From Echinarachnius parma (Eukaryota; Echinodermata; Echinoidea; Clypeasteroida; Echinarachniidae), in contig JBAMJV010005509.1 in the NCBI GenBank assembly GCA_037951105.1, positions 62,001-126,000 of the forward strand: a DNA stretch of 64,000 nt. Reading direction: 5' to 3'. The translations under genes and the position numbers were made by a program. Shown here piece after piece: positions 6,601 through 51,047 of this stretch (positions are counted from its first letter, which is position 1; every line of letters starts with the position of its first letter). The notes beneath the pieces are model-generated. The model saw only the letters and a list, made by a program, of their open reading frames with translations, searched no databases and had not been told where the DNA came from.

Positions 6601-9600
6601 GTAGATTCCACTTACCCCATACAACTGTGGTAGATTCCACTTAACCCATACAACTGGGTTAGTTACCACTTACCCCATACAAGTGGGGTATAATCGAACG
6701 TTGCAAGTGGGTCATACGACTGACCCGTTGTTTTCCCTTAATTATATAAATTAATAGAAAACAACAAGTTAGAAATTCTTCTCCTAGGCGCATCATACAT
6801 GATACTGTACAGCATGCTATTACCCTGTATAGCCGAGCTGCCTGCAAGCAGGCGCATCAAGCATATCAAGAAATGGGTTCTAAAACTCCTTCTGCCTGCC
6901 CACCATAACCATAACGTTAAGCAAATCGTCGTCGATGTGGATGAAAAGAGTGGTCTACTACGGCCACCCTGCTGACCAACCAAGGCCATCCTGCTGGCCA
7001 GCCGAGCGGGTCGCTTCCTCCTATACGGCCGCCTCAGCTCAGGCTTGGCCGCTTGGCCCGGGCAGGCAAAATTCTCCTCCTAGCGCTTCAGCTCCAATTC
7101 CTCTATAATCTCGTCACTCGACATAGTTGCACTGTCGTCACACTATTGAGAACGTGCCCCTTTATAGGCGCAATAGCGAACTCCAGTCGTTGGAATTTTA
7201 ACTACTTTGAATACCTTTTGTGATAATGCACTGTCCGAGACACTCGGAAATGCTAACCCTCTGAATGCTTGTACGAGTGTTATGTAATAGAATTGCGAAG
7301 TAAACGAGGTAAATTACTTTCTCTCACGTTTTGTGTCTGTTTATGTAGTGCGTGTGGTCCATAAACGGGGGTCTATGAGGGCACGTGCGGAGTTACCAAT
7401 TTTGTCGTAATTTGCTAAAGATTGTATCAAAGTATACCACCACATTACGGGTAATGTTATTGTTGATATTGCGGATATTATTTGTAATGTTCTTGTCTAT
7501 TTTTGTAGTGAGCAAATAGGAAGAAAATAATGAATTAATATATTTATATTTCATGTATGGTTTTACTTATTAAATTTGCCTACCATGATTTTCACGAGAA
7601 ACGTATAGTATGGCATCCGTGACGTATTGGATTTTGAGGATCGTTCCATTACTCGTTGATTATTTATGTTTTTTAAAAATCAAATATGGGAAAAGTTAAA
7701 GGTTTCAAATTATTTATTTGTATGGAATGGTTTTTTTCTAAAATCATGATTTGAATTATCAAAGTAGTGCATTTCGCCAATAAAGTCTTCTTTTAAATAA
7801 GGGAAATATGCATGAAAAATTTTACACTCTGATTTGTGATACTTATCACTATGTATGTAATGTCCGTGACGCCATTTCTGGACAAACCATAAAATATTTT
7901 TGTTAATGCTCTTGATCTATTATATGATATTACATTCTAGCTTTGAAAATTAATTTTGAACTAAATTGAATTCAAACTCATGCTTGTACAAACAAATTTA
8001 TATCTAAAACGTCACGGACATTACGCATCAATGTTGTAAGAATCAAGATTTTTAAAATGAAATAACAGTTTTCAAAAAGGAGATTTTCACACAATTTCCT
8101 CTTGTATAGTATTAAAACAAAGCCTAAACTATACCCAGGAAGTAAAATTATTGTTGTGAAGTGATCCATATTTTTTTTTTTTTTTTTTTTTACAAACAAT
8201 GCATGCAATTTTTATCATTTTGGGGGGGTCAATGCATACAAATTTTGTCCAACTTCAATGGCCGAACAAAAAAATATTCTGCATTGAATCTCAAACTTTC
8301 TTCATTTAGTCATCAAAATATGGTCCTTCCTTATTACTATCCAGTAGTTAACAAGGCTGTTACATGAATTTCATTTTTTCACCCTTGGGTAACATTTTTC
8401 GTGGAATTGCCCATAAAATGGTTTTCTAATGGACATTCAGTTAGTGTTTTGTACAAGGAATTTCATTCAAGATTAAATTAATATTTTAATTTACCTGAAT
8501 ATTCGGATTGCTTCCCTTCAGCAACGCCTTGACACAATCGACGTGGTTCTTAGATGCAGCCATGTGCAGTGGGCTCCTGCTGCCTTCGTGTCTGGTAGTG
8601 TTTGGATCTGCACCCTTCGACATCAAGTACTGGATCAATTTGGGTTTGTTCCTCGGGGATACAAGATAAGAGAATATTGAGTTATTATCGAAATAACATG
8701 CTTAGAGTTAACTCAGAGTTTGAAATGCCTTCTAGGCGTAATAATAATGATATTTTATTTTACAAACTTTCTCATTACGGTGTGCGTGGTAAGGCCTTGG
8801 AGTGGTTCAGGAATTACCTCTCAAATAGACAGCAATATGTATTTGTAAATAATCATAGTTCAGAGTTATGTAATATATCTTGTGGCGTCCCACAAGGAAG
8901 TATCTTAGGCCCACTCTTATTTATTTTATATATTAATGATTTTAGTAGGTCATCTGATGTTCTATCGTTTGTTCTTTTCGCCGATGACACTAACTTATTT
9001 TTTTCTCACGATAATCCACACACTCTTGCAGAAACAATCAATGTTGAATTAGGCAAGGTATTAAAGTGGATTAGAGCCAATAAATCATCATTAAATTTGC
9101 AGAAAACTAAATATATGCTTTTTAGTAAATCTATACATTCGTTACCCATAGATATTGCTTTTGAAGATTTTATATTGGAAAACGTTTCTAATATTACATT
9201 TTTAGGGGTTACCGTAGATTTCATGGACATTTCATATAAATAATATTTGTAAAGTTATTTCTCCCCTTAGCATCCTTACTTATGTTGTATTCATCCTTGA
9301 TATTATACCATACTTAAATTATGGTATTTTGACTTGGGGTAACACCCACGTAACATTATTAGATAAGTTGTTGTTATTGCAAAGGATAGTACTTCGTATT
9401 ATTTTTAATATGGCCCCACGCTCTCACACAGACTTTTTTTTATTTTTTGTATAATAATATATTAAAAGTTAAGGACCTATATTTATAATTAGTTCATAAG
9501 TACCCAACTAGACACTCGGAAATTTTCCATTTGCCCTTATTGAGCGCGTTATTAGCTCAAAATACATTTATTTATATTGGTCCCAAATTTTGGAATACTC

Positions 9601-24600: not shown

Positions 24601-27600
24601 TGGTGGTGGAGGGAATATCACAGAATGTTCTGATCTCCGAGGGATTTGAAATGCTATGGAGGGAAGGTTATAAGTCATGAGACGTAGTCGAGGGACTTTC
24701 TTCACGAAATGGCACTTCACTGAATCCCGCGGGAACATTGCATGATTTTCCCGACAACAAAGTCAACATCTGTCATTATTACATGACAAAAGTAACACAT
24801 CTGTACACTTTAAGTCTGTCTGAGCTCAATCACAAAATGTGGCTTTTCAAAGTGATAATGTTGACGTATTGTGACGTCATAATATAATCCCCTCTCTCGA
24901 TTCCATTGTGACGTCATAATACAATCTCTCTTGCAGCGTGCGCCATGTAATATAACACCTGCCGTGGACTATTATACTGTTGTTAACTGGCGGTGGAGGG
25001 AATAGCACGGAATATTACATCCCGAGGAATTTTAAATGCTATTGAGGGAAGAGTAAATAAGTCCCGAGACGAAGTCGAGGGACTTATTTTCTTCACGAAA
25101 TAGCATTTGGAATCCCGAGGGTAGGAATATTCCGTGATTTTCCCGACAACAAAGTTAACAACTGTTTTATCATCTGACTGTCAAATTGAAATCATAATCC
25201 GTTTCACTCGCTCACAGAAACACCCGCTTCACATCACATTCACACAACACGCACAACGCAGAGTTCAACGGCATTCATGTGCACAATAAAGTCGATCGGC
25301 GTACTTAGAATTGCCTTTCTCAGCACTAATATCTCAACATATTCAGATCACTGCATTTCTATCAGAACTATTTGTCGATTGTTTCCTTCGATTATATTTA
25401 CCAGGTCACTTTCTGATCCAATTGTACTGAAAATCGCTGATTTTCGTTTTTTTTCTTTTCTTTCGTTCGCTGCCCGCGAGATAAATGGTTTTACACGTGT
25501 CACATGCATGTACAAGTAACACGGTACGATACGCCGGTATGTACACGTTTAATACGGTATGTGTACATTTTGTATCGTAAACAATTGCCCCTTGACTTGC
25601 AGGGGTGTAATATTGCCATGTACTATCCAAAAATATAACACGGCAGCGGCATGTACTGTATTTACTAAATCAGGTGATAAAACAAACTATTATATCATCT
25701 GACTTAGTAAAATACGCGTCGTCGATTGGCTAAACACGGTCACATGATTGGAATTTGGGGTGTCATTTTGGCATGACACCATGGTCAGAGAGTTATGACA
25801 CCCGCATGGCGCGCGCTGCAAAATAGATTGTATTATGACGTCACAATGAGAACCATGTATGGTACACGTACCATACTAGTTTTTGACTGATTTCAGTTTC
25901 AATGCATGAATGCCCCGGATTTAGCCAGATGATATAACAGTTGTTAACTTTGTTGTCGGGGGGGGGGGGGGGGGGGGAAATGCTATTTCGTGAAGAAAAT
26001 AAGTCCCTCGACTACGTCTCGGGACTGATTTACTCTTCCCTCAATAGCATTTAAAATCCCTCGGATGGAACATTCCGTGATGTTCCCTCCACCACCAGTT
26101 AACAACTGTATAATGGCAATCACGTGACTGTGTTGAGCCAATCAATGACTCGTATTTTACTAAATCATGTAATATAACATTTTGTATTATTATCAGCCAA
26201 AATTCCCAAACACAGGATACAAACATGTCATTACTTTAACTTCATGTATTTAATCCATTGGTTAAAGGGCAATGAACCCAAGCAAAATGTTGCTTTCATA
26301 GTCTTGAAGAGATTAAGAAGAATAATCTCTGAAAGTTAGAGCATAATCGGGTAAGAAACAAGAAAACTACGGCTCTTTGAAGATGTCCATTTATTCCTAT
26401 GGGGAACTCAAATTGGCAATGCACTCTGATAAGTGTGTGGACAACTCCACATATGTAATGTACACAAATGTTCCCATTTTTACAGTTTTCTTCATAGTCA
26501 CATTTTTCCATTCCCCCAACTCATGATATGTTATGTATAAAAGCATTCTACAAAACATATGTTGAACTCGAACGAAGGGTAAACATAAATTTTGAGAAAA
26601 TTGAACAAAACTGAAATTTTGTGTACAAAATGTATGGGGAGTTGTCCACAACTTTGCCAGAGTGCGTTGCCATTTGAGTCACTCAAAGAAATACATGACT
26701 CTTTTCAAAGAGCCATAGTTTTCTTATTTCTTGACCGATTGTGCTCAAATTTTCAGAGACTATTCATTATATGTAGTGTCTTATAGTGCATACAACAATT
26801 TGTCTGGATTTCATTGTCCTTTAATGTTTAAAACAAATTATGTACTAAGACAGGTTTGACTGTAGAGTCAAACCTTAGTGGCCACCTGTCTATAGCAACC
26901 AACCTGCCTATAGTGGCCAGAAAAAGTAATCCCCTGCAGAAAAACACTGTTATGGAACCTGTCTATAGTGGTCACCTGGCTGTAGTGGCCACTATTATTG
27001 ACTCCTTTGGGTGGTCACTATAACCATATTTGACTGTATAGTGTATCAAATTAACTGATGGACTATATTTATATTGGGTTAAATGTGTCTTTTGGCCATT
27101 AAATCAAGTAATGAAAATGAATATTTTACACATTAGATTATGGGATAGCTAATATATGTACTATAATCACAATGTTCAATTTAGGATCCAGAATTATGAT
27201 ATTCGTGCTGAAACACATAAGTGTATGTTACAACGTATGTTACAAAATATAAATAACTCAAAGTAAATATGACACAGATCAATAAATTTGCAGCAAAATA
27301 AGACAGTGGTCGAATTAAATAACATGTATGCTTACAAGTAAAGCAATACAACAATATTGACTGGGGGCTGCAGAAAGTAATCTGATGTTGTTCCAAACTA
27401 AAATTAAACCCACAGTGTAACATGTGTTGGTCCTATTCCCAGCCTTACCAAATCTCGGCAGATGATCCTTGTAGTACGCACTCCCATTAGCAGCCTTGAT
27501 GCACTTGACATCTACCTTCCCATCATGCCCCACGCGATACTCATAGGCCCCTCCCTTGTTCCAGCGCACTGCCACGGCGCTGCGGAGGGTATTGGCCCAA

Positions 27601-36540: not shown

Positions 36541-37045
<505 letters not shown>

Positions 37046-37811
37046 ACTAATATATAACAACTATAACAATGCCATCTGCACCGTACCCTCACTCAATAGT
37101 ATTATCAACATCACATGCATCTTCATCATTCCCCCTTCTGTTGTTGTTTCTTTTTCTTCTGCCTCTTTTTCATCACTACCGTCACTCTCCATTTTCACCA
37201 TCGCAACTACCACCCTGACCACCACCACCACCACCATCATCACCCGTCATTTTCATCATCAGCAGCAGCAGTTGCAGCATAATCAATAGCATCAGCAATA
37301 ACAATACATTATGAACATATCAATATCATTTGGCTGATGGGACTCATTATTGATTTAATTTGTTTCGATTTGATTGATATTATTTCCATACTTTTGTTCA
37401 ATATACAAAGTATACTGAAACTGTCTCCGGCGCCAGGACTCGAAGAGTCAGACCTGGGTGTAAGACCTAACTCTCTATCCTTGATGTAAATATGAAGAGT
37501 TTGGTTTCGAAATTACATTTCTCTATGTTGGTCAACTTGAAATAAATGTGTTGTAAACCATATGTTTCGATATTATATAGTTTTCATGAGGTAAGATGCT
37601 GTTTGGAAAAGATGAGAGGAAAAACAAATTATGGTTTATGTTCTTAAAAGAAGTTTACTCACGCATGCAGATAAATGATTATCTCTCTAAAGAAGGAAAA
37701 CAGACACTGCATAATTTACCAAATGCTTTAAAAATGTACTTCTAGTTTGTAACCAATCATAAAAGGTATATGACTTGTAAATTTATATGAAATGTGCAGT
37801 AATGAATAAAT
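37046..37811. other. Spacer before the duplicated unit
   Basis: No gene seen. The part after about 37550 resembles R1 copy 1 near 3600-3660 (gaggtaagatgctgttt), so R1 may extend left of the duplicated unit. Confidence 0.4.
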
Positions 37812-37965
37812 GCCGAGAAGGGGAAAGAAAAAAAAAAAAATGCTGTTTTGAGATTTAAAAATTGAACAAATTGAAAAAATTGTAAACATCACGGACATTA
37901 CATATGGAAAATAATGCACTAAGAGTACAATTTAATCAGTTTGATCGCACTTTATGATATTTATA

Positions 37966-38104
37966 TAATATTGACTGGCCTTGAGGGGGATACGACATAA
38001 TATTGCCTGAACTAGATTCATATTGCCCGAGTCGAAGACGAGGGCAATATGGATCCTAGTGAAGGCAATATATGTCGTATCCCCCGAAAGAGCCAGTCAA
38101 TATC
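37966..38104. mobile_element. Hairpin element FB-B, copy 2
   Basis: Arms taatattgactggcc and complement fold over 'gggggatacgac' and 'atattgcc' blocks. The apex cccgagtcgaagacgaggg is at 38026-38044. Absent from R1 copy 1. Confidence 0.85.
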
Positions 38105-38108
38105 ATTA

Positions 38109-38466
38109 TTATTACCCATATCAGACATATTGAGCAGTAACGGAAATTAGTAAAATGTGATACCAAAACCAAGTCTCTGCTTGATAATTGTCACAAGTAC
38201 GGCTGCGGCTTGTTTCGTGTACACACCAATGACAAATCACTATCGCGAGATTTTTCCCGCGGGCCAGTTCACTTTGTAAAATTTCGACTACGAATCGAGA
38301 AGTGACCGGATGTCATATTCCCCTCTTTTTTAACACGTAAATCCCATAGGCTTTTGTGAAAGAGGGGAATATGGGAAATATTCCCCTATTTCACCTGCTG
38401 GCACTTGAAACGAGGGGAATATGATTTTGTAAAACCACAGCTCAGATGTCTGATATGGGTAATAAT
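38109..38466. mobile_element. Foldback element FB-G
   Basis: Inverted ends ttattacccatatcagacat and atgtctgatatgggtaataa. The interior contains inverted 'cccctctt/aagaggggaatatg' blocks. It directly follows FB-B; both are repeated in U2. Confidence 0.75.
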
Positions 38467-39137
38467 TAACTATCTCCTTCTTCTCCAAGTAAGTTCTAGT
38501 TAAATCTGTATTGATTATTGAAACATGCATGTTCAAATTGAGCGAGGAATTGAGTTTTACAAATAATTCAGAGTACAGACTTAAAGTTCACTATCTGATA
38601 ACTGGACAAACTATCAAATATTTTTGGTCATGCCCTTGATATATTATATGATATCACATTCTAGCTTTAAAAATGAATTTTGAACTAAACTGAATAAAAA
38701 CGCATGCTTCTACAAAAACTTGTATATCTAGAGAACGTCACGGACATTAATTACACATCAATGTTGTAAGAATCGAGATTTTATCAAATAACAGTTGAAA
38801 AGTAGAGACTTTCACACAATTTTCTTTTTTTTCCTGTATAGATACTAGTATAGTATTTAAAAGAAACCCTATATACTAGACCCTATGAGTAGAATTATTG
38901 TTACGAAGTGATTAATATTTTTAATTTTAATTTTTACAAACAATGCATGCAAATATCATCATTTTTGGTGGTAATACATACAAATTTTGCCCAACTTCAA
39001 TGGCGAAAACAATAAAAAATTCTGCATTCAATTTCAAAATGTCTTCATTATGTCATTAACAGTATGGTCCTTCCTCAATTTTGTCACCTTATCATGCCTA
39101 GGGTAACATTTTTCGTGGAATTGCCCAAATGACTTAC

Positions 39138-39193
39138 CTTAGTTCGCGAGTTGAAGAGGCTGGTCCGTCTATTCGGTTTGAACTCTAGAGTAG
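39138..39193 (-). CDS. Exon-like 56-nt sequence in U1
   Basis: On the minus strand it is bounded by the acceptor ctgctttacag and the strong donor aag|gtaagt. One frame is open through all 18 codons (TLEFKPNRRTSLFNSRTK). The copy in U2 differs by a single base, which is silent in that frame. It could be an upstream exon of the MIB2-like gene or of an unseen gene. Function unknown. Confidence 0.4.
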
Positions 39194-40008
39194 CTGTAAA
39201 GCAGTTTCGATAAATCATTAGGAAAGAAGAGAATACAATATCGTTTGAACAATATCATATCATGCAAAAATCATGCAGATAACATTATACTGTGTTCAAG
39301 AGCAGACTGCATGCAGTATGAAAGGCGTTTGTTCCAAAATCGACTTGAACTTGACGCTTATTATTGCTTATATAGAATTTGACGCACGAAACGAGCAGTA
39401 TCCCAATATTTTGGGTGGCTAGGAATGTCCAAGTATGTGTTTGCGTTTATGGGGCTCCATTGGGGCCTTGCATTTTGTGACCGAAACCAATGCATGTGTT
39501 GAGCAACGGGGGAGATTTGTGATTGGGGTGGGGTGAGGGTGGGGAGGGGGGATGGCACATATATTTCCTTTGGGGTGCATGCTTCGCCCTTGTTTGTAAT
39601 ACTACATTTGCCCCGGCGCCAAATGCTAAATAGGGCAAATGTTAATGGTTTTACTAGGGGTTTTGTTTATGAAAAATGGCCTAGTGAATTTGCAACGGGG
39701 ACAAATACCATGCCACGACACGTTTAGCGTGATAGTAGCAGGTGGAAGGGGGGGGGGGGGGGGGCAGAGGGTTGATTGCCCCCTACGCAGTAGTAATCAT
39801 TGTTCACATGATGCCCCATTCCCTTTCCTCGATCGTATCGTCAGGTTCGCGTCGATTTTGACACACATCGCCGCTCATACTCACACAAGCAATAGTTCTG
39901 TCATTGGGGGTTTTGGGAAGCGGAGGGAAAACCCGGACAGGTAGCCTATTCATTGCGCATGGGCGTTCTTTTGTGTACTGGCAGCCGAGAAAAAATAAGT
40001 CCTCTATA

Positions 40009-40408
40009 CAGTACAGAAGCCATGACGTCATAAAAACACCTTTTTTATTTTCAAATTTGGACTTCATTTTTAGAAAGAGCATCACAAATAATGTCAAAAT
40101 ACCGAAAATCAAAGGAATAGGTTACGTATTGGCTGATATATGCCCATCCGAATGAATTTTACTTCAATGGGCAATCAGTGTTATAAAGCACTGGTTCCTA
40201 AATTTATGAACCAGTGCACTATAACACTGATTGCCTATTGACAAAAAAATAATTCGGATGGGCATATCTCAGCCTATACGTAACATATTCCTTTGAATTT
40301 CGGTATTTGGACATTATTTGTTATGCTCTTTCTGAAAATGAATTCCAAATTTGAAAATTCAAAAAAAAATGTTTATGACATCATTTATGACATCACACTT
40401 CACCACTC
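40009..40408. mobile_element. Foldback MITE FB-A, copy 2
   Basis: 400 bp, inverted relative to copy 1, ends cagtacagaagccatgacgt and acacttcaccactc, with tata on both sides (40005-40008, 40409-40412). U2 has the uninterrupted site near 50975-50985. Centre palindrome at about 40185-40210. Confidence 0.9.
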
Positions 40409-40440
40409 TATAATAATCGATGGGTTTACAATACCATAGC

Positions 40441-40686
40441 TGTGCTGATAGTATTAAGGTCTGATATTATAGACTAGTAAGATATCGGACATCGTCGATA
40501 TCGATGTCCGTATACTCGATATTGCGTGTGTACTGTAAGCACTGCATTCCATGGCAGAAGACATGTGACTTCATTATGGCTGACTGCGATCAGTAGCGAC
40601 GTCGTGTTTATCATGAATAAAGATTCACACCTGAAATGACTTTGTACTCGACCATTATTGATTAGCATACATCAAATAACATTGCA
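40441..40686 (+). repeat. 5' LTR of the gypsy-type element
   Basis: Starts tgtgctgata and ends aacattgca. Holds a 9-bp inverted repeat cggacatcg/cgatgtccg (40486-40494, 40502-40510) and AATAAA at 40616-40621. No clear TATA box was identified. Confidence 0.95.
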
Positions 40687-41028
40687 TGGTGTCAGAGTTG
40701 AGGATCCGCTTTGGAAAATGACGTTTCTGAGGGGAGAAAGTGAAGTTTGAACCCGAAAATAAGGTGAAGACGTTTCAGTTTTTTCGCATGCAATACTCGT
40801 AACACGTAGGGAACGAAGCCACTACGTACAATCAATACACTAAACCTTGTACACACGGTTGTCTATGGCAATACAGTATACATAACATGACTGATTCAGC
40901 GTGGAATGTCGTTGTGCGTAAGACATACTAACCTCCATGAAATTGCTTGTATCGTTATTTTGACTGGGTTTTAAAGTACCGCAGCAGTAAAATAAGTTAT
41001 TAAAGAATTGTTCTGAGAGGGTGAAAGA

Positions 41029-43191
41029 GTGAGATTGATTATGGCGACTAGTCTTAGCCAACCAGATTCATTGGATTTGAGTGGAAATCTAGCAGAGAAT
41101 TGGAAGCGTTTCAAGCAGAGGTTTGATTTGTTCAATGTTGCTAGTGGAATGTCGCAGAAAGATGATAAATGCCAGACTTCTATGTTTCTTCATGTCGTTG
41201 GGGATGGCGCCCTAGACATATACAATACGTTTGTGTTCGCCGAAGAGGGTGATGAGATGAAACTTGAGAAAGTCATTGAGCAGTTTGAGAAATATTGCAT
41301 GCCAAAACGCAATGTGACGTATGAAAGACATAGATTCTTCACGAGGTCACAGTGTGAAAGTGAAACGATTGATCAGTATGCTACAGAGTTGAGACATCGC
41401 GCACAGTCGTGTGAGTTCGGAGATTTGACAAACAGTTTGATTCAGGATAGAATTATCTGTGGAATGCTGGATAATGGGGTCCGTGAACGTCTATTGAGGC
41501 ACGATGCGTTGACACTCGATAAGACATTGCAGCTATGTCGTGCTGCTGAAACTACTCGAGCTCAAGCCAATGAGTTGAGTTCAAAGGATGAGGTCTTCGT
41601 CGATGCTCTAGGAAGTAAGAAAAGGTTCTCTTCCAGGTCTCAGCAGAGTTTCAGGCAAGGTGAAGTTCATAGGCCACGTCAGGGTCAGGATTCAAGGCCG
41701 AAACAGAATTCAAGGAGTACATGTGGTAGATGTGGAAATTTCCATGGTTCGATTGGATGTCCGGCTCAAGGTCAAGTTTGCAGGAAATGTGGTAGGAATA
41801 ATCACTTCGCAAAGTGTTGTAGAACACCGGTTGACAGAGTAATCAATGAGTTGCAGAATCTGGAGGTCGAAGATGATTTCTATGTTGATGTCGTAGAGGC
41901 AGAGAAATCAAGTGACGAGTGGAAGGTCAATGTGATTGTCAATGATAAACCAGTAGAATTCAAGTTGGATACTGGCGCTCAGACAAATCTAGTTCCGGAA
42001 TCAGTGTATCAGAGTTTGAAACCTAAACCAAAGTTGCATCCGGCGCGTGTGAGGTTGACAGGGTACAGCGGAGTAACCATCCCGGTCAAGGGACGTTGTT
42101 TTGTACAGGTTCAGTACAAAGGTTCAACTCACACCATGGACTTTCTAGTGACTCCAGGAGAAAGACAACCGTTGCTAGGACTACAAGCATGTGATGCGCT
42201 ACAGCTTGTAAAAAGAGTCTTGAATGTCAAGACAGAATCGCGACATGTGGTCGACGATTACCAAGACGTGTTTCAAGGGCAAGGATGTGTGCCAGGCAAG
42301 CATCACATCACACTAAACAAGGATGAAAGACCCATTGAACACGCATGTAGGAAAGTGTCATCCAACAGACGGAAACAGTTTGTTGAAGAAACAAAGAAAG
42401 ACAAGACACTACAGCAGCTGTTAGGAGTCATCAAAGATGGCTGGCCTGAATCAAAACAGCAGTGTCCAGTAGCTATCAGAGAGTACTGGAACATCAGAGG
42501 TGAGCTATCTGAAGCTCAAGGCTTGATACTCAAAGGCAACAAGATTGTTGTACCAGCATCGATGAGGCATCAGATGCTGAGTCAGATCCATGAGGGTCAC
42601 CAGGGCATTGAAAAGTGCAAGAGACGTGCAAGAGTTGTCTTGTATTGGCCCAGAATCAATCAAGATGTTGCGAAAATGGTACAAAATTGCCATTCGTGCC
42701 TGAGGTACAAGCCAAAACAGCAGAACCTGCCCATGTGGGACAATGATTCCACGCACGTCGATCCTCAAACGGTGAGGAAAAGGAAGGAAGGGCAGAAAGC
42801 AAAACAAAAGAGACACTATGACCAACACGCTCGAGACCTACCAGAGTTCAGCGTAGGAGATCATGTCAGACTGCAAGACATGCAGAACAATCGTTGGTCA
42901 CAACACGGGGTCATCAGGACCAGGCTGCCAAATCGTTCATATTTGGTACAGCTCGACAACGGCGAGATTCGACGACGAAATCGACGTCATATTCGACCGG
43001 CGCCACAACGCAGAGATGAGGGAATCATCGCAGCGCAGACGGACAGCGAATCCGAGGACGTCGCAGTCAACGATGACGACAACCACGCACGACGAGGTGA
43101 TCGACCAGCGTCGCCAGGACCACCAGCGTCATCATACAGGACCACCAGGAGTGGACGACCTGTCAAGCCCCCAGAGCGCTTGGATCTTTAA
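41029..43191 (+). CDS. Fused Gag-protease-integrase-end polyprotein of the gypsy-type element
   Basis: 720 codons; the second Met at 41041 is an equally likely start. Gag occupies about 5-230. Two zinc knuckles follow: CGRCGNFHGSIGC (C232, CX2CX3HX4C) and CRKCGRNNHFAKC (C251, CX2CX4HX4C). The aspartic protease motif is LDTGA with D314. Family order then expects reverse transcriptase and RNase H, but after residue 444 the frame passes straight to a pre-integrase segment and the integrase zinc domain (H521, H524, C554, C557; VLYWPRINQDV). It then jumps to an integrase C-terminal segment (VGDHVRLQDMQNNRWSQHG) and an acidic/basic tail. The DDE core is missing. The frame is intact despite both losses, so the deleted form seems to be maintained or very young. 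Confidence 0.92.
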   Translation: MRLIMATSLSQPDSLDLSGNLAENWKRFKQRFDLFNVASGMSQKDDKCQTSMFLHVVGDGALDIYNTFVFAEEGDEMKLEKVIEQFEKYCMPKRNVTYERHRFFTRSQCESETIDQYATELRHRAQSCEFGDLTNSLIQDRIICGMLDNGVRERLLRHDALTLDKTLQLCRAAETTRAQANELSSKDEVFVDALGSKKRFSSRSQQSFRQGEVHRPRQGQDSRPKQNSRSTCGRCGNFHGSIGCPAQGQVCRKCGRNNHFAKCCRTPVDRVINELQNLEVEDDFYVDVVEAEKSSDEWKVNVIVNDKPVEFKLDTGAQTNLVPESVYQSLKPKPKLHPARVRLTGYSGVTIPVKGRCFVQVQYKGSTHTMDFLVTPGERQPLLGLQACDALQLVKRVLNVKTESRHVVDDYQDVFQGQGCVPGKHHITLNKDERPIEHACRKVSSNRRKQFVEETKKDKTLQQLLGVIKDGWPESKQQCPVAIREYWNIRGELSEAQGLILKGNKIVVPASMRHQMLSQIHEGHQGIEKCKRRARVVLYWPRINQDVAKMVQNCHSCLRYKPKQQNLPMWDNDSTHVDPQTVRKRKEGQKAKQKRHYDQHARDLPEFSVGDHVRLQDMQNNRWSQHGVIRTRLPNRSYLVQLDNGEIRRRNRRHIRPAPQRRDEGIIAAQTDSESEDVAVNDDDNHARRGDRPASPGPPASSYRTTRSGRPVKPPERLDL

Positions 43192-43553
43192 GATTTAGGA
43201 TAAACAGAACTTAAAGAACATAGACATTACAAAAAAGATGCATGTTCCATGTTTGGATTTTAAAGAGAAACATGGGCAAGAGTTTAAAAGGACTATTGAA
43301 ATAGCACTTATGAAATTTATAATGGTTATGTTTAACAATGTTGTTCTGTTCTCTCCACAGATGTCTGGATGAAGACTTTAAGATGGACTGAGTTATAGAG
43401 TTCACAAGATTGGAGTCAAATAAGTCATATGATTTGTATTTGTAAATGTTTAAACAAATATGCATTGAATGAATAGGTTTTTAAAGATAAGTAAATTGAA
43501 ACATATAGAAACTCACACAATTATAAAGATATTGGATTGTTTAATATGCTTAA

Positions 43554-43649
43554 AGTTTAAAGGTGATAAAGAAACAAAAAATGATTCAGTAAAATGCATG
43601 TAGTTTAAAGGTGATAAAGAAACAAAAAATGATTCAGTAAAATGCATGT
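43554..43649. repeat. Two tandem 48-bp units in the element's 3' UTR
   Basis: 'agtttaaaggtgataaagaa' starts at 43554 and again at 43602; the two 48-bp units look identical. Confidence 0.9.
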
Positions 43650-43697
43650 ATTATAATTGTGTAAAAAGAAAGGAAACCTTCTTTAAAGAAAGGGAGG

Positions 43698-43943
43698 TGT
43701 GCTGATAGTATTAAGGTCTGATATTATAGACTAGTAAGATATCGGACATCGTCGATATCGATGTCCGTATACTCGATATTGCGTGTGTACTGTAAGCACT
43801 GCATTCCATGGCAGAAGACATGTGACTTCATTATGGCTGACTGCGATCAGTAGCGACGTCGTGTTTATCATGAATAAAGATTCACACCTGAAATGACTTT
43901 GTACTCGACCATTATTGATTAGCATACATCAAATAACATTGCA
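43698..43943 (+). repeat. 3' LTR of the gypsy-type element
   Basis: Identical by eye to the 5' LTR over all 246 bases. Its AATAAA would serve as the polyadenylation signal. Confidence 0.95.
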
Positions 43944-44782
43944 ATAGCATAGGCGAGAAGGGGAAAGAAAAAAAAAAGATGCTGTTTTGAGATTTAAAAT
44001 TTGAAACAAATTGAAAAAATTGTAAACATCACGGACATTACATATGGAAAATAATGCACTAAGAGTACAATTTAATCAGTTTGATCGCACTTTATGATAT
44101 TTATATAATATTGACTGGCCTTGAGGGGGATACGACATAATATTGCCTGAACTAGATTCATATTGCCCGAGTAGAAGACGAGGGCAATATGGATCCTAGT
44201 GAAGGCAATATATGTCGTATCCCCCGAAAGAGCCAGTCAATATCATTATTATTACCCATATCAGACATATTGAGCAGTAACGGAAATTAGTAAAATGTGA
44301 TACCAAAACCAAGTCTCTGCTTGATAATTGTCACAAGTACGGCTGCGGCTTGTTTCGTGTACACACCAATGACAAATCACTATCGCGAGATTTTTCCCGC
44401 GGGCCAGTTCACTTTGTAAAATTTCGACTACGAATCGTGAAGTGCCCGGATGTCATATTCCCCTCTTTTTTAACACGTAAATCCCATAGGCTTTTGTGAA
44501 AGAGAGGAATATGGGAAATATTCCCCTATTTCACCTGCTGGCACTTGAAACGAGGGGAATATGATTTTGTAAAACCACAGCTCAGATGTCTGATATGGGT
44601 AATAATTAAGTATCTCCTTCTTCTCCAAGTAAGTTCTAGTTAAATCTGTATTGATTATTGAAACATGCATGTTCAAATTGAGCGAGGAATTGAGTTTTAC
44701 AAATAATTCAGAGTACAGACTTAAAGTTCACCATCTGATAACTGGACAAACTATCAGATATTTTTGGTCATGCCCTTGATAT

Positions 44783-45712
44783 TGTTACGAATTTTCATGA
44801 TCGTATTTGCAAAGTATTGGACAATTATACCTGACCTGTAGTAAATGAATGTATAAATGTGTTTCGTCGTTGATTCATGTTTAGTCAGACCTCCACTATC
44901 TCGCTTCCCCTCTCTCTTTTTCCTTTGATTCCCATCCCTCAGTTTCTCGCCCTCCCGCGTGGGTCGTATTACTCTCGCTTATCGTCTTGTTTTGGAATCA
45001 GAACAAGTGGCCCTCTCTGTCCTACCAGATACCACTTTCCTTTCCTAAATGTTGACATTCTCTTGCTCATGCTCTGAATTCCAGAAATTCCCCCATTCCA
45101 TAATATTTTGGTGTTTTATCTTATTCTTTGTTTTAGAAAGAATGCTATGTTTTATATGAAGTTGAAGTATGTGTAAAACAAAGCAATGTTTCTTATGATG
45201 TTGAGATATTTGAAATACCTTACATATTTGTCGAAGACTTCAACATATCTCTACTTTCTTGTAAAGTGTATAAATACTTGACTTTTCCTAAATGAGGTGG
45301 TGAGTTGTACGATAGTTAGTTGTACAGGGGAGTTCGTTAGTTGTACCAGAGAGCCCGTAGTCAGTGTGGATTGGAGTTAGCTATAACCATGGGTTAGGGC
45401 GAGTTTAGTTACGTTTTTGAGCTAGTTCTGATCTGCGTTCTCCGCAGCCTACATGTATTAATCCCACATTCATGTCAACCCCTATGTGGTATGTACTTGT
45501 GAATAAACTCAAGCAGTTATATTTCAGAACTTGAATCCTCATTTATTATTATCTCCTTGCGTTGGATTATCTGAGGCACGCTACCGTGATTGATTGCGAA
45601 CCTGTGTGATTGCTAAGTGAAATGAACGTATTAATTTAAAGACACACAATACCTCATCATTATCTTCATCATCTTCATCCCAAACATTTGTCATCACCCG
45701 ACATTTGTAACA
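44783..45712 (+). repeat. 5' LTR of the 4.8-kb element
   Basis: TATA box tataaata at 45269-45276 and AATAAA at 45502-45507, so U3, R and U5 can be placed. The frame 44877-45077 is shared by both LTRs and is not coding by any recognised family. Confidence 0.93.
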
Positions 45713-48661
45713 CTGGTGTGCAGCGGTGGGATACAGACTTTAACACGTGCCTGACATAGCGACAACATCCTTCATTTCAGTTCACACTGGTGAAAATGGA
45801 ATATGAACCTGCTCGTGCAACCTCTGTACCTCGGTTTTCTGGAGAAATGGCTCCAGCCAGAAACTAACTTGGATATTTATTCTTACACCATAATGTCGGC
45901 AAGAGGAGTACATGCTCTGTGATTAAGATCATGGACACGATTTGGATTTGTTGTCGCCAGTTCATACAATTCACATTTGTATGAAGATCGCCATGTTTGT
46001 AGATGGACATGCTCACGGAGGAAGAGTTTACGAGTGATCCTGACATGATGGAGGCCAGTATGACTAAGCTTGGCGTGTGGTCAGGGTGGTGGATGTTGGT
46101 GGTCATTTTGGCGAGTTCGAGGAGAAGCTTCTGGCCTGGCGTGTATGGAGCTGGAGCGGCCCTCTCGACGACCCCGTGTCATCGCCGTCCGCATGCCGTA
46201 GTTCATCGTCAGCGGCCGCGGGAATCAGCACACAGGACGTCATGTGCGGCGTCGTTCCTTCTTGTGTGCTGGAACGGCTGGGAGTTCGAGTGGTACACGG
46301 ACGGAATTACCTAGAACCTGACCTATCGGCATGTAAAATATTCTGTAATTCGACGGCATCGAGGGAAGCGTTTAGACGTCATTAATCAGCTAGCACATAT
46401 CTGGGAAAATAATATTTGAGATTTATGGATATGGATCGTAAATTATGCAGAGCTGTTTAGCTGTATTGTAATGAAACGTGAACAAAGAGGTTTGTTTGCG
46501 ACACAGCTTTTAATTGATATTTGTGAGAAAAGAGTTATTTAGTTTTTTTTATTAGTGTGATAAATTATCGTCTTCGATATGGAGGAGCCTTGGGGTCATC
46601 GTTGCTGTAGTGGATTATGAAGTGAGGTGCGATATATGTAGTTTAGGTTAATTTGTATGTTAAGTCGCGTTGTGATACAGCCAGTATGTGTTGGATCATA
46701 CTGGGTATCTGTAAAAGTGGTCGCGCCGAAATCAGAGCTGAGGGGCCGTTGCCATGGTTCCGTTGGAACGAGCCCGGTAATTTATATAGTGTAGATTTAG
46801 ATATCGCGACCATCACGCGGTCGAAGTACGAAACGACAACCTGCCCTGCGTCTCCAACACAGACGCCTTAGCCGGAATCTCCGGGCCGTAGGAAGCCGTC
46901 TTTCAACAAATCGTCCGCGAACGTTTTATAAACCAAGAAGCAGAAGATGACCACGACAGCGACATGGAAGCGATTACATCGAAATGTACTATTCCCGTAT
47001 CCAGATAGTATATGTGTATGACGAACACGACCGTGGGCATCGATCACGGCGGGCCTTGGCCGGACTCGGATTGTTGCAGTGGTGATCATCGTCAGAATTT
47101 CGATTATTTATGAAGGAATAATGTTATAATAATTAAACCTAGAAACTGAGACAATGGACTATATAGACCTTCCCTTGATGTTCGTGAAGAAAAGGAACTG
47201 TACTCCTTGCATGTCGAAATAAACGTATTAACTCTTGGACAAAAATGAACTCAGTATGACCAAGGTTACGTTTTGACTTTTATCGTTTTATTTTCGTTCG
47301 ATAACATTGTGACATGTTTAAAATGTTTGTTCTGTATGCCCTGTGGACATTAATAAAATTTCCATTAAGTTATTATGCATGATTGATTTAAAGAAAAAAA
47401 AGAAACGTAAACAAATTGAAGACAAAAAGAAAGAGAATGAACGTTAAGTAAACATAAGAGTTGTTGTGGTAAACGAACGTGTGTTTTGTTTTAAGAAGTT
47501 ATTGGTAGTTAATGTTCCTTGTAAGTTGTATATAGGAATTTGATGTGTCGGTTATTGTGCAGCGTTCAATTTTATGTTTGGATGTTCTCTTTCTATAAGT
47601 ACTTGAATTTCGATCGTTTCTTGTTTCTCCTTTTCATGCATGTAAATAGTTTACTCCGTATTTTTGATTCGCATATATTTTATACAGGGGTTGTATAGGG
47701 CGAGCGTATATTTTGTTGATGCATGTTGTGTTCCGAGCAGTTAGAGTCTGCATAACACATGTCTTCAGTTCTTCTTTCTACCCCCTCTCTCCCTCTCTCC
47801 TTATCACTCACTCTGTAATTCCTGTACTGGGATGTGTTTGTTAATCATGTTCATGCACATTATGCAACCTGTTTTTTTGTGTATTGTGCGGATGTCGATT
47901 TTTAAATACTGTATGGCAGTTGAATTGGTTCCGATTTATCATAACATTGGATTTCTTGCTGATTGTCGTTGAAATTATAGGTGGCAAAATGTGTTGATCG
48001 AAGTTAGGAACGGTGTAAAATGACAGCACATACAAGTACATGATATACAGGTTGTGATTCACATGTTATGTTGCAATGTCGACAAGTTTCGTTTCGTTGG
48101 TGTTTTAACTTTGCCATCTTATTTGGTTTTGCAGGAAATCACGATATGCGTGTTATCTCTTTTAGACCAATCACTTTCTTCTCTTCTCCCTCTCAACCCA
48201 TATTTCTCTCCTCCTCTATCTATCCACTATAACTCGTCCCTATCGCATTGACTCTCTCTCCCCTTTCGACCTTTCTCACCTGTTACGCCTGAATCTGTTC
48301 TTATTCTCTCACTTGTTTTGACACCTATTGCGCGTGTTTATGTTGTACGTTGTAAATACACGTGATGTGTTATGATAATACATGTACCACATTTTTTGTG
48401 GCCAGACATAGTTTCGCAAGAAAGGAACGATTGGTCGACTTTGTTTTTATTATGTACTTGTTTAAACTTGATTTAACCATGAACTTTGATTGAATTGAGA
48501 ACGCTGTTACTTTGCATCAGCTTATAGTCTGTATATGATTTGTTTTCGTTTTACATTATTGTAATGATAATGAGTTATTTGAAAATTGTTGATGAGCATT
48601 TGAATGTCCTCTTACTTTAATCATGTCGATGAGGGCATCGACTTATGAGGAGGGGGGATAG
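45713..48661 (+). other. Interior of the 4.8-kb LTR element
   Basis: Starts with ctggtgtgcagcggtggg, a possible primer-binding site. A first ATG at 45796 reads 23 codons (VPRFSGEMAPARN at its end) and stops, which resembles a truncated Gag start. Frames of about 100 codons at 46003-46314 and 46077-46385 overlap in different frames. They have no recognised domain. The rest is AT-rich. Confidence 0.6.
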
Positions 48662-49591
48662 TGTTACGAATTTTCATGATCGTATTTGCAAAGTATTGGA
48701 CAATTATACCTGACCTGTAGTAAATGAATGTATAAATGTGTTTCGTCGTTGATTCATGTTTAGTCAGACCTCCACTATCTCGCTTCCCCTCTCTCTTTTT
48801 CCTTTGATTCCCATCCCTCAGTTTCTCGCCCTCCCGCGTGGGTCGTATTACTCTCGCTTATCGTCTTGTTTTGGAATCAGAACAAGTGGCCCTCTCTGTC
48901 CTACCAGATACCACTTTCCTTTCCTAAATGTTGACATTCTCTTGCTCATGCTCTGAATTCCAGAAATTCCCCCATTCCATAATATTTTGGTGTTTTATCT
49001 TATTCTTTGTTTTAGAAAGAATGCTATGTTTTATATGAAGTTGAAGTATGTGTAAAACTATGCAATGTTTCTTATGATGTTGAGATATTTGAAATACCTT
49101 ACATATTTGTCGAAGACTTCAACATATCTCTACTTTCTTGTAAAGTGTATAAATACTTGACTTTTCCTAAATGAGGTGGTGAGTTGTACGATAGTTAGTT
49201 GTACAGGGGAGTTCGTTAGTTGTACCAGAGAGCCCGTAGTCAGTGTGGATTGGAGTTAGCTATAACCATGGGTTAGGGCGAGTTTAGTTATGTTTTTGAG
49301 CTAGTTCTGATCTGCGTTCTCCGCAGCCTACATGTATTAATCCCACATTCATGTCAACCCCTATGTGGTATGTACTTGTGAATAAACTCAAGCAGTTATA
49401 TTTCAGAACTTGAATCCTCATTTATTATTATCTCCTTGCGTTGGATTATCTGAGGCACGCTACCGTGATTGATTGCGAACCTGTGTGATTGCTAAGTGAA
49501 ATGAACGTATTAATTTAAAGACACACAATACCTCATCATTATCTTCATCATCTTCATCCCAAACATTTGTCATCACCCGACATTTGTAACA
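48662..49591 (+). repeat. 3' LTR of the 4.8-kb element
   Basis: Differs from the 5' LTR at 'aaactatgc' for 'aaacaaagc' near 49057 and at 'gttatg' for 'gttacg' near 49290. TATA at 49148-49155. Confidence 0.93.
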
Positions 49592-50104
49592 ATATATTAT
49601 ATGATATCACATTCTAGCTTTAAAAATGAATTTTGAACTAAACTGAATAAAAACTCATGCTTCTACAAAAACTTGTATATCTAGAGAACGTCACGGACAT
49701 TAATTACACATCAATGTTGTAAGAATCGAGATTTTATCAAATAACAGTTGAAAAGTAGAGACTTTCACACAATTTCCTTTTTTTTCCTGTTTAGATACTA
49801 GTATAGTATTTAAAAGAAACCCTATATACTAGACCCTATAAGTAGAATTATTGTTACGAAGTGTTTAATATTTTTAATTTTAATTTTTACAAACAATGCA
49901 TGCAAATATCATCATTTTTGGTGGTAATACATACAAATTTTGCCCAACTTCAATGGCGAAAAAAAAAAAAATTCTGCATTCAATTTCAAAATGTCTTCAT
50001 TATGTCATTAACAGTATGGTCCTTCCTCAATACTATATCCAGTAGTTAACAAGGCTATCACATGAATTTCATTTTGTCACCTTATCATTGCCCAAATGAC
50101 TTAC

Positions 50105-50160
50105 CTTAGTTCGCGAATTGAAGAGGCTGGTCCGTCTATTCGGTTTGAACTCTAGAGTAG
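50105..50160 (-). CDS. Exon-like 56-nt sequence in U2
   Basis: Same bounds, splice sites and frame as 39138-39193; Asn is AAT here and AAC there. Transcript evidence would be needed to call it an exon. Confidence 0.4.
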
Positions 50161-50725
50161 CTGTAAAGCAGTTTCGATAAATCATTAGGAAAGAAGAGAA
50201 TACAATATCGTTTGAACAATATCATATCATGCAAAAATCATGCAGAGAACATTATACTGTGTTCAAGAGCAGACTGCATGCAGTATGAAAGGCGTTTGTT
50301 CCAAAATCGACTTGAACTTGACGCTTATTATTGCTTATATAGAATTTGACGCACGAAACGAGCAGTATCCCAATATTTTGGGTGGCTAGGAATGTCCAAG
50401 TATGTGTTTGCGTTTATGGGGCTCCATTGGGGCCTTGCATTTTGTGACCGAAACCAATGCATGTTTTGAGCAACGGGGGAGATTTGTGATTGGGGTGGGG
50501 TGAGGGAGGGGAGGGGGATGGCACATATATTTCCTTTGGGGTGCATGCTTCGCCCTTGTTTGATATACTACATTTGCCCCGGCGCCAAATGCTAAATAGG
50601 GCAAATGTTAATGGTTTTACTAGGGGTTTTGTTTATGAAAAATGGCCTAGTGAATTTGCAAAGGGGACAAATACCATGCCACGACACGTTTAGCGTGATA
50701 GTAGCCGGGTGGGCAGGTGGAAGTG

Positions 50726-51047
50726 GGGGGGGGGGGGGGGGCAGAGGGTTGCTTGCCCCCTACGCCGTAGTAATCATTGTTCACATGATGCCCCATTCTC
50801 TTTCCTCGTATCGTCAAGTTCGCGTCGATTTTGACACTCATCGCCACTCATACCCGCACAAGCAATTATTGGGGGTTTTGGGAAGCGGTGGGAAAACCAG
50901 GATAGGTAGCCTACTTTATTCATTGCCCATGGGCGTTCTTTTGTGTACTGGCGGCCGAGAAAAAATAAGACCTCTATAATAATCGATGGGTGTACCATAC
51001 CATAGCAAAGGCGTACCAAGGGGGGAGGGGGGGGGGGGGGGGGGTTG
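50726..51047. repeat. Poly-G tracts at the end of U2
   Basis: Runs of G at about 50726-50741 and 51017-51044. U1 carries a comparable run at 39749-39764 of different length, showing how fast these tracts change. Confidence 0.8.

What the first reader, a model, noticed from the sequence alone, without database searches (positions are those of the whole stretch)
40441..43943. Young gypsy-type element whose single frame skips reverse transcriptase and the integrase core
Seen: two 246-bp LTRs without a difference by eye, the 5-bp duplication atagc, and one open frame of 720 codons. The order is Gag, two zinc knuckles, protease LDTGA, integrase HHCC zinc domain, then the integrase C-terminal segment. 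RT, RNase H and the DDE core are missing, yet the frame was kept across both gaps. Known non-autonomous LTR elements usually keep only Gag or no protein at all. Keeping Gag, protease and both integrase ends suggests these parts may help package or integrate the element while a full relative supplies RT.
Basis: partly seen in the sequence, partly recalled or inferred. Interest (0 to 1): 0.85.

Follow-up and report, generated by a model that had tools for sequence, protein, structure and literature searches.

The report
Shortened mobile element using a helper
This is one of about three dozen genome copies of a shortened virus-like mobile element that lost its copying enzyme and the core of its insertion enzyme, probably spreads by borrowing both from an intact sister element in the same genome, and still keeps its shell-forming and cutting proteins under selection.

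Summary
Observation confirmed. The element at 40441-43943 has identical 246-bp LTRs, a 5-bp target duplication and one 716-codon frame: Gag, protease, integrase zinc domain, integrase C-terminal segment. RT/RNase H (1311 nt) and the integrase core (474 nt) are missing, each a whole number of codons.

Junction 1 is spanned in 40 of 40 scored places, junction 2 in 36 of 40. Copies have different target duplications and mostly identical LTRs. Intact 5.3-kb relatives with 1321-codon open frames share the LTR start and polypurine tract, but not the primer site. Junction 1 is a 6-nt direct repeat and neither gap fits GT-AG, so template switching is the likely origin, not splicing. One copy (L016) carries a helper-derived patch with the integrase core, which suggests co-packaging.

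Variants shared by three or more copies are poor in amino-acid changes (omega 0.30, p<0.0001); private ones are near neutral (0.89). Constraint shows in Gag-protease. None is demonstrable in the integrase remnant, and a form with a stop at codon 615 was mobilised. So it is a semi-autonomous Gag-protease element: a known kind (wheat GAG-Pro elements, mouse IAP 1-delta-1) in a new variant, probably from an echinoderm.

The parts
40436..40440 (.). 5' copy of the target duplication ATAGC
   Evidence: empty site with one copy at 50972-51013
40441..40686 (+). 5' LTR, 246 bp, TG...CA
   Evidence: identical to the 3' LTR
40687..40703 (+). primer-site-like sequence; its tRNA was not identified
   Evidence: position directly after the LTR; same in 16 of 19 elements read there counting the window, 1 base different in L012, L021 and L022
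41041..43191 (+). fused frame, 716 codons: Gag, two zinc knuckles, protease, integrase zinc domain, integrase C-terminal segment
41722..41820 (+). two zinc knuckles of Gag (read by eye, no Pfam match)
   Evidence: translation
41926..42183 (+). aspartic protease (LDTGA)
   Evidence: Pfam PF13650, E 1.7e-08
42351..42356 (+). junction 1: one copy of a 6-nt repeat left by a 1311-nt loss of RT-RNase H
   Evidence: 6-nt repeat in 10 of 10 autonomous copies compared; spanned in 40 of 40 scored places
42550..42717 (+). integrase H2C2 zinc domain
   Evidence: Pfam PF17921, E 1.8e-16
42723..42724 (+). junction 2: 2-nt overlap left by a 474-nt loss of the integrase core
   Evidence: spanned in 36 of 40 scored places
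42725..43191 (+). integrase C-terminal segment and tail
   Evidence: alignment with full-length relatives
43685..43697 (+). polypurine tract
   Evidence: same in the autonomous copies L030 and L036
43698..43943 (+). 3' LTR, 246 bp
43944..43948 (.). 3' copy of the target duplication ATAGC
50972..51013 (+). paralogous empty site with one ATAGC, at the end of the second unit of the tandem duplication

Best explanation
The window holds one copy of a recently active, semi-autonomous Ty3/gypsy family. An autonomous 5.3-kb element lost RT-RNase H by template switching between two 6-nt repeats; a descendant then lost the integrase core; both losses kept the frame. The short RNA is most likely packaged together with the RNA and proteins of the autonomous sister, copied by the sister's RT and inserted by its integrase, which would recognise the shared LTR start. 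The element's own Gag-protease product is still selected, most simply because Gag is needed in quantity and acts by preference on the RNA that encodes it. Shown by sequence: the junctions, the copy number, young independent insertions, intact resident relatives, one patch from relative to element, and constraint on Gag-protease. Inferred: co-packaging, supply of RT and integrase in trans, and preference in cis. The integrase remnant is most likely carried along rather than needed.
For: Junction 1 spanned in 40 of 40 scored places of 95 candidates; junction 2 in 36 of 40 scored of 67. 15 of 18 copies have exact, mutually different target duplications, and 16 of 18 LTR pairs have no mismatch. 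Autonomous relatives: 26 match rows in 24 places at 91% or more to P0023, five with a 1321-codon open frame and no stop in the match; pieces of L030 hold RT, RNase H, H2C2 and rve; L030 and L036 have identical LTR pairs. Direct repeat at gap 1 in 10 of 10 copies, no GT-AG. L016: helper-identical core (544 of 545 bases) inside a family copy. Selection: variants in 3 or more copies N21 S28, omega 0.30, p<0.0001, against private variants N148 S67, omega 0.89.
Against: The primer sites of the two families differ, and no tRNA gene was found by the one pattern that was answered. LTRs are only about 77-80% alike where aligned whole. Leaving out sites where helpers carry both states, the signal weakens: N15 S15, omega 0.40, p=0.011, Fisher against private 0.061; with variants in 2 or more copies N29 S18, omega 0.65, p=0.098. 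Variants in exactly two copies show no constraint (N22 S5 in the 30-copy set). No expression, particle or mobilisation data.
Confidence: 0.78

Rival explanations
1. Pure passenger: the short element is mobilised entirely in trans and needs only its LTRs, primer site and packaging signal; the open frame is a relic of youth and the selection signal comes from recombination with helpers or chance.
For: L021 and L022 were mobilised with a stop at codon 615. The signal weakens when helper-polymorphic sites are left out, and two-copy variants show none. Recombination with helpers occurs.
Against: The 3-or-more class stays below neutral without helper-polymorphic sites (0.40, p=0.011) and without CpG sites (0.34, p=0.001); the stop at 615 leaves Gag and protease whole; private variants in the same copies are near neutral.
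Confidence: 0.15
2. Interfering parasite: the Gag-protease product is kept because it jams or captures helper particles, as defective interfering genomes do, rather than helping its own RNA.
For: The same sequence evidence (shared Gag, shared ends, constraint) fits; short copies (about 36 with junction 2) are at least as many as the 24 autonomous places found.
Against: Selection on one copy for harm to a helper it depends on is hard to sustain; no data on helper activity.
Confidence: 0.05
3. Spliced RNA copied back: the gaps are introns removed from the element's RNA before reverse transcription.
For: Both gaps keep the frame, and spliced subgenomic retroelement RNAs are known (BARE, PMC3735527, abstract start in the listing).
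Against: No placement of either gap gives GT-AG; gap 1 has a 6-nt direct repeat; the gaps arose at different times, since L073 has gap 1 only.
Confidence: 0.01
4. Assembly collapse of a full element.
For: The assembly is in 14,790 contigs.
Against: The same breakpoints recur on many contigs beside full-length loci assembled without loss: 0 of 23 autonomous loci span either junction.
Confidence: 0.01

Closest known systems
RLG_Sabrina_SA and RLG_WHAM, semi-autonomous GAG-protease Ty3/gypsy elements of wheat (PMC9744471, passages)
   Same: Ty3/gypsy; Gag and protease coded, RT and integrase function missing; proposed to be mobilised by an autonomous partner.
   Different: Here an animal genome, about 36 copies, a remnant of the integrase ends fused in the same frame, both breakpoints readable against a close resident relative, and a selection test on transmitted variants.
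Mouse IAP 1-delta-1 (PMC6466679 and PMC7411935, passages)
   Same: Internal deletion giving an in-frame Gag-Pol fusion; non-autonomous; young and mobile; there the fusion protein is reported to act in cis.
   Different: A vertebrate retrovirus-like element with a single 1.9-kb deletion of part of gag and pol; here two separate deletions that leave Gag and protease whole.
RLG_Cereba and RLG_Quinta of einkorn wheat (PMC11302176, passages)
   Same: Autonomous and non-autonomous pair; the partner keeps Gag; recombination between lineages.
   Different: [quoted passage not shown] that pair shares the primer site, here it differs.
Sea-urchin K02A2.6-like Gypsy proteins (P0001, P0002)
   Same: Nearest named protein relatives, 56-59% over the Gag-protease side.
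   Different: They carry RT. P0001 also lacks the integrase core, at a nearby but different place; real deletion or gene-model intron is unknown.

Membership tests
Ty3/gypsy LTR retrotransposon | LTR pair TG...CA, 4-6 bp target duplication, primer site, polypurine tract | tested here: met
Ty3/gypsy LTR retrotransposon | domain order Gag, protease, RT, RNase H, integrase | tested here: inconclusive
   order of the remaining parts fits, RT, RNase H and integrase core absent; met in pieces of the resident relative L030
Semi-autonomous GAG-protease element | codes Gag and protease, lacks RT and a working integrase | tested here: met
   protease by Pfam, Gag by alignment
Semi-autonomous GAG-protease element | multi-copy and mobile form | tested here: met
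Semi-autonomous GAG-protease element | autonomous partner sharing LTR ends, primer site and polypurine tract | tested here: inconclusive
   LTR start and polypurine tract shared, primer site different
Semi-autonomous GAG-protease element | mobilised in trans by that partner | not testable with these tools
   only indirect: the L016 patch
IAP 1-delta-1 | in-frame fusion that acts in cis with gag and pol supplied in trans | not testable with these tools
   in-frame fusion present; function untested; it is a Ty3/gypsy element, so it works like an IAP 1-delta-1 at most and is not one
TR-GAG (plant; definition recalled, listing only) | Gag is the only coding domain | tested here: not met
   protease and integrase zinc domain present
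LARD or TRIM (definition recalled) | no coding capacity | tested here: not met
   716-codon frame, constrained in Gag-protease

The most novel reading that the evidence does not exclude
The fused Gag-protease-integrase-ends product is itself a selected cis-acting partner: a truncated polyprotein that builds mixed particles with the helper's enzymes and steers them to its own RNA, so that the pair is a two-component replicator in an animal genome, with the core-less integrase module adding multimerisation or tethering.
Probability: 0.2. Interest if true: 0.75.

Novelty: new variant of a known kind. Interest (0 to 1): 0.5.

Why it matters
It gives an animal Ty3/gypsy case in which intact relatives, exact breakpoints, an old RT-less copy that still has the integrase core, the amplified short form and a helper-patched copy all survive in one genome. 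That makes an open question testable by sequence and RNA counts: does a non-autonomous LTR element keep its own Gag because the protein favours the RNA that encodes it?

Tried and rejected
Splicing as origin: rejected, no GT-AG placement at either gap. L016 as the ancestral intermediate: my first thought, dropped when its integrase core proved 544 of 545 identical to a helper and its flanks nearest to the junction-2 copy L019; the old copy L073 fills that role better. Frame intactness alone as proof of selection: not used, copies are too young. IMG/VR and GTDB genome scans: no relatives. Protein database: no other protein seen with both gaps in two searches of 101 and 83 hits, the first of which scored only part of its candidates. 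Deviation of the frame from columns conserved in seven aligned proteins: no region stood out clearly. tRNA gene for the primer site: one pattern answered, 0 matches; the pattern for the autonomous family did not complete. Dropped before counts: L063 and L064 (misaligned ends); L016; L065 (no difference to L062 in the frame); L013, L014 and L028 (split or cut copies) from the frame set; L061 reads N over its last 339 bases.

Full report
OBSERVATION. The element runs from 40441 to 43943: identical 246-bp LTRs, ATAGC on both sides, a primer-site-like sequence directly after the 5' LTR and a purine tract before the 3' LTR. Its one frame has 716 codons from ATG 41041 (720 from GTG 41029). Pfam reads a protease and the integrase H2C2 zinc domain, with no RT, RNase H or rve core. 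The element stands at the boundary of a tandem duplication (37814-40440, and 43949-51013 with a second LTR element inside); the end of the second unit is an empty site with one ATAGC, 39/42 identical to the joined flanks.

RELATIVES OUTSIDE. The nearest named proteins are sea-urchin K02A2.6-like Gypsy proteins. A metagenome protein, P0023, is 87% identical over 26% of the query around the protease and continues into RT. Alignment shows the gaps at RT-RNase H and at the integrase core. In two searches (101 and 83 hits; 174 proteins in all) I saw no other protein with both gaps; 2 of 66 proteins with both integrase ends lacked the core (P0001, P0128), and 7 with protease and zinc domain lacked RT. 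Some of these may be gene-model effects.

THE FAMILY IN THE GENOME. The host assembly has 1.2 Gb in 14,790 contigs. The LTR search scored 40 of 203 candidates and gave many LTR pairs about 3.3 kb apart. DNA across junction 1 matched through the junction in 40 of 40 scored places, of 95 candidates. DNA across junction 2 matched through it in 36 of 40 scored places, of 67 candidates; the last four were half-matches, among them autonomous loci, so about 36 is probably near the total. Besides the window I read 36 short-type stretches, two of them halves of one copy. Of these 36, 34 cover junction 1 (L013 and L028 do not reach it) and 28 span junction 2 at the threshold used; L063 and L071 carry 6 nt more there (by sequence for L063, by the size of the match for L071), L018 has a 78-nt deletion there, and L016, L073 and L074 lack junction 2. 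None of 23 autonomous loci spans either junction.

AGE. Of 18 copies with two LTRs aligned (window included), 16 pairs have no mismatch, L011 has one and L027 four; L010 has a 6-nt length difference, and L019, L025, L026 and L027 were compared over 216 to 230 nt. Fifteen of the 18 have exact 5-bp target duplications, all different; L010, L025 and L027 were not resolved. Leaving out L061 (tail reads N) and L016, and counting L063 and L064 as broken, 16 of 30 copies have the intact 716-codon frame.

THE AUTONOMOUS SISTER. P0023 gives 26 match rows in 24 places at 91% identity or more; five have a 1321-codon open frame with no stop inside the match (85 of 2030 candidates scored). Pieces of one, L030, hold protease, RT, RNase H, H2C2 and rve. 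L030 and L036 are 5317 and 5335 nt long with LTR matches of 239 and 240 bases at 100%; read from the printed flanks, their target duplications are TACAT and TACAG. Aligned pieces of 23 autonomous loci are mostly 89-97% identical to the window's coding sequence, while whole LTRs are about 77-80%. LTR start and purine tract agree; the primer sites differ. The tRNA was not identified. This difference is the main point against a simple partnership.

HOW THE GAPS AROSE. In 9 of 10 autonomous copies compared, gap 1 is 1311 nt (437 codons), 1310 in L048; in 10 of 10 it is bounded by the same 6 nt on both sides, one copy of which is kept. Gap 2 was read in 9 copies: 474 nt (158 codons) in 8 and 475 in L033, with a 2-nt overlap. 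Neither can be placed to give GT-AG. Deletion between short repeats is the usual mark of reverse-transcriptase template switching (established knowledge, recalled). L073, an old broken copy at about 93%, has junction 1 with one base changed but still has the integrase core region; L074 has a similar junction 1 with a few bases more lost, and a different, frame-breaking loss in the core. A maximum-likelihood tree of Gag-protease DNA (48 sequences, rooted at the midpoint) puts the 16 autonomous copies in one clade (support 100) and the 30 short copies, L016 among them, in another (74), with L074 (98) and L073 (46) outside it. So RT loss probably came first, on modest support.

A PATCH FROM THE HELPER. 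L016 shares junction 1 but has the core and an 876-codon frame. It differs from its nearest neighbour L019 at two sites before 42698, then carries the autonomous state at 42698 and 42704 (at 42700 it agrees with 2 of 18 autonomous copies), has a core region 544 of 545 identical to L036, and shows the family state again at 42751. Two template switches in a mixed particle explain this best; gene conversion in the germ line is possible.

SELECTION. The transition-transversion parameter was set at 3.5, estimated at 3.53 from leader and frame variants. With 28 copies (L016 and L065 removed), private variants are N148 S67 with 6 stops: omega 0.89, p=0.23. Variants in three or more copies are N21 S28 with 1 stop: 0.30, p<0.0001, Fisher against private 0.0009. 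Without CpG sites the two values are 1.10 and 0.34 (p=0.001). Without sites where helpers carry both states the shared class is N15 S15: 0.40, p=0.011, Fisher 0.061. Variants in two or more copies: N39 S32, 0.49, p=0.0023; without helper-polymorphic sites N29 S18, 0.65, p=0.098. Gag to linker (codons 1-437), three or more: N14 S22, 0.25, p<0.0001. Integrase remnant (438-716): N7 S6 with 1 stop, 0.47, p=0.14; without helper-polymorphic sites N4 S2, 0.81 (all). Variants in exactly two copies were N22 S5 in the 30-copy set, ten of them in the pairs L062/L065 and L027/L070 when L016 is left out. In the set of intact frames alone the contrast between private and shared was not significant.

DISPENSABLE END. 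L021 and L022 have different target duplications, differ by 4 mismatches and 2 gaps in 3614 aligned bases, and share a stop at codon 615. The more diverged copy L066 has the same stop. So Gag-protease appears constrained while the far C-terminus can be lost.

COMPARISON. Semi-autonomous GAG-protease elements are known in wheat (PMC9744471, passages); RLG_Quinta keeps Gag beside autonomous RLG_Cereba (PMC11302176, passages); mouse IAP 1-delta-1 is a non-autonomous, highly mobile in-frame gag-pol fusion reported to act in cis (PMC6466679 and PMC7411935, passages; the original 2008 paper is not held). Passages of a mosquito survey (PMC3286476) describe non-autonomous elements without coding capacity. 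The paper searches listed no animal Ty3/gypsy element with Gag, protease and fused integrase ends, by titles and abstract starts only, and the library holds only openly licensed papers. I rate it a new variant of a known kind.

Noticed in passing
44783-49591: A second, nested LTR element with about 930-bp LTRs (99.6% alike over 935 aligned bases), target duplication ATAT and no frame above 103 codons in the listing: a LARD-like non-autonomous element.
   Followed up: partly
37814-40440 and 43949-51013: Tandem duplication whose boundary holds the element; parts are 98.7% and 93.9% alike.
   Followed up: partly
40041-40364: Palindrome with 162-nt arms, 88% complementary, present only in the first unit of the duplication; relatives at about 27536-28760.
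   Followed up: no
L013:1320-6001 and L014:1-3461: An insertion of about 8.1 kb splits one copy of the family inside its frame; it holds a long open stretch with two zinc knuckles, a weak PNMA-like Gag match and a weak protease match; no RT match to three query proteins.
   Followed up: partly
43554-43650: Perfect 48-bp tandem duplication in the 3' untranslated part of the element.
   Followed up: no
36558-37049: About 165 copies of a TAC repeat, 91% matches.
   Followed up: no
P0001 (Strongylocentrotus purpuratus): A sea-urchin relative with RT but without the integrase core, at a nearby but different place, in a cluster of 15 member sequences; real deletion or gene-model intron unknown.
   Followed up: partly
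L074 (C7732:131060-133460): RT-less relative with its own, different 283-nt loss in the integrase core, so core loss happened more than once.
   Followed up: partly
8602-9243: 213-codon frame that looks like a non-LTR reverse transcriptase fragment by eye.
   Followed up: no
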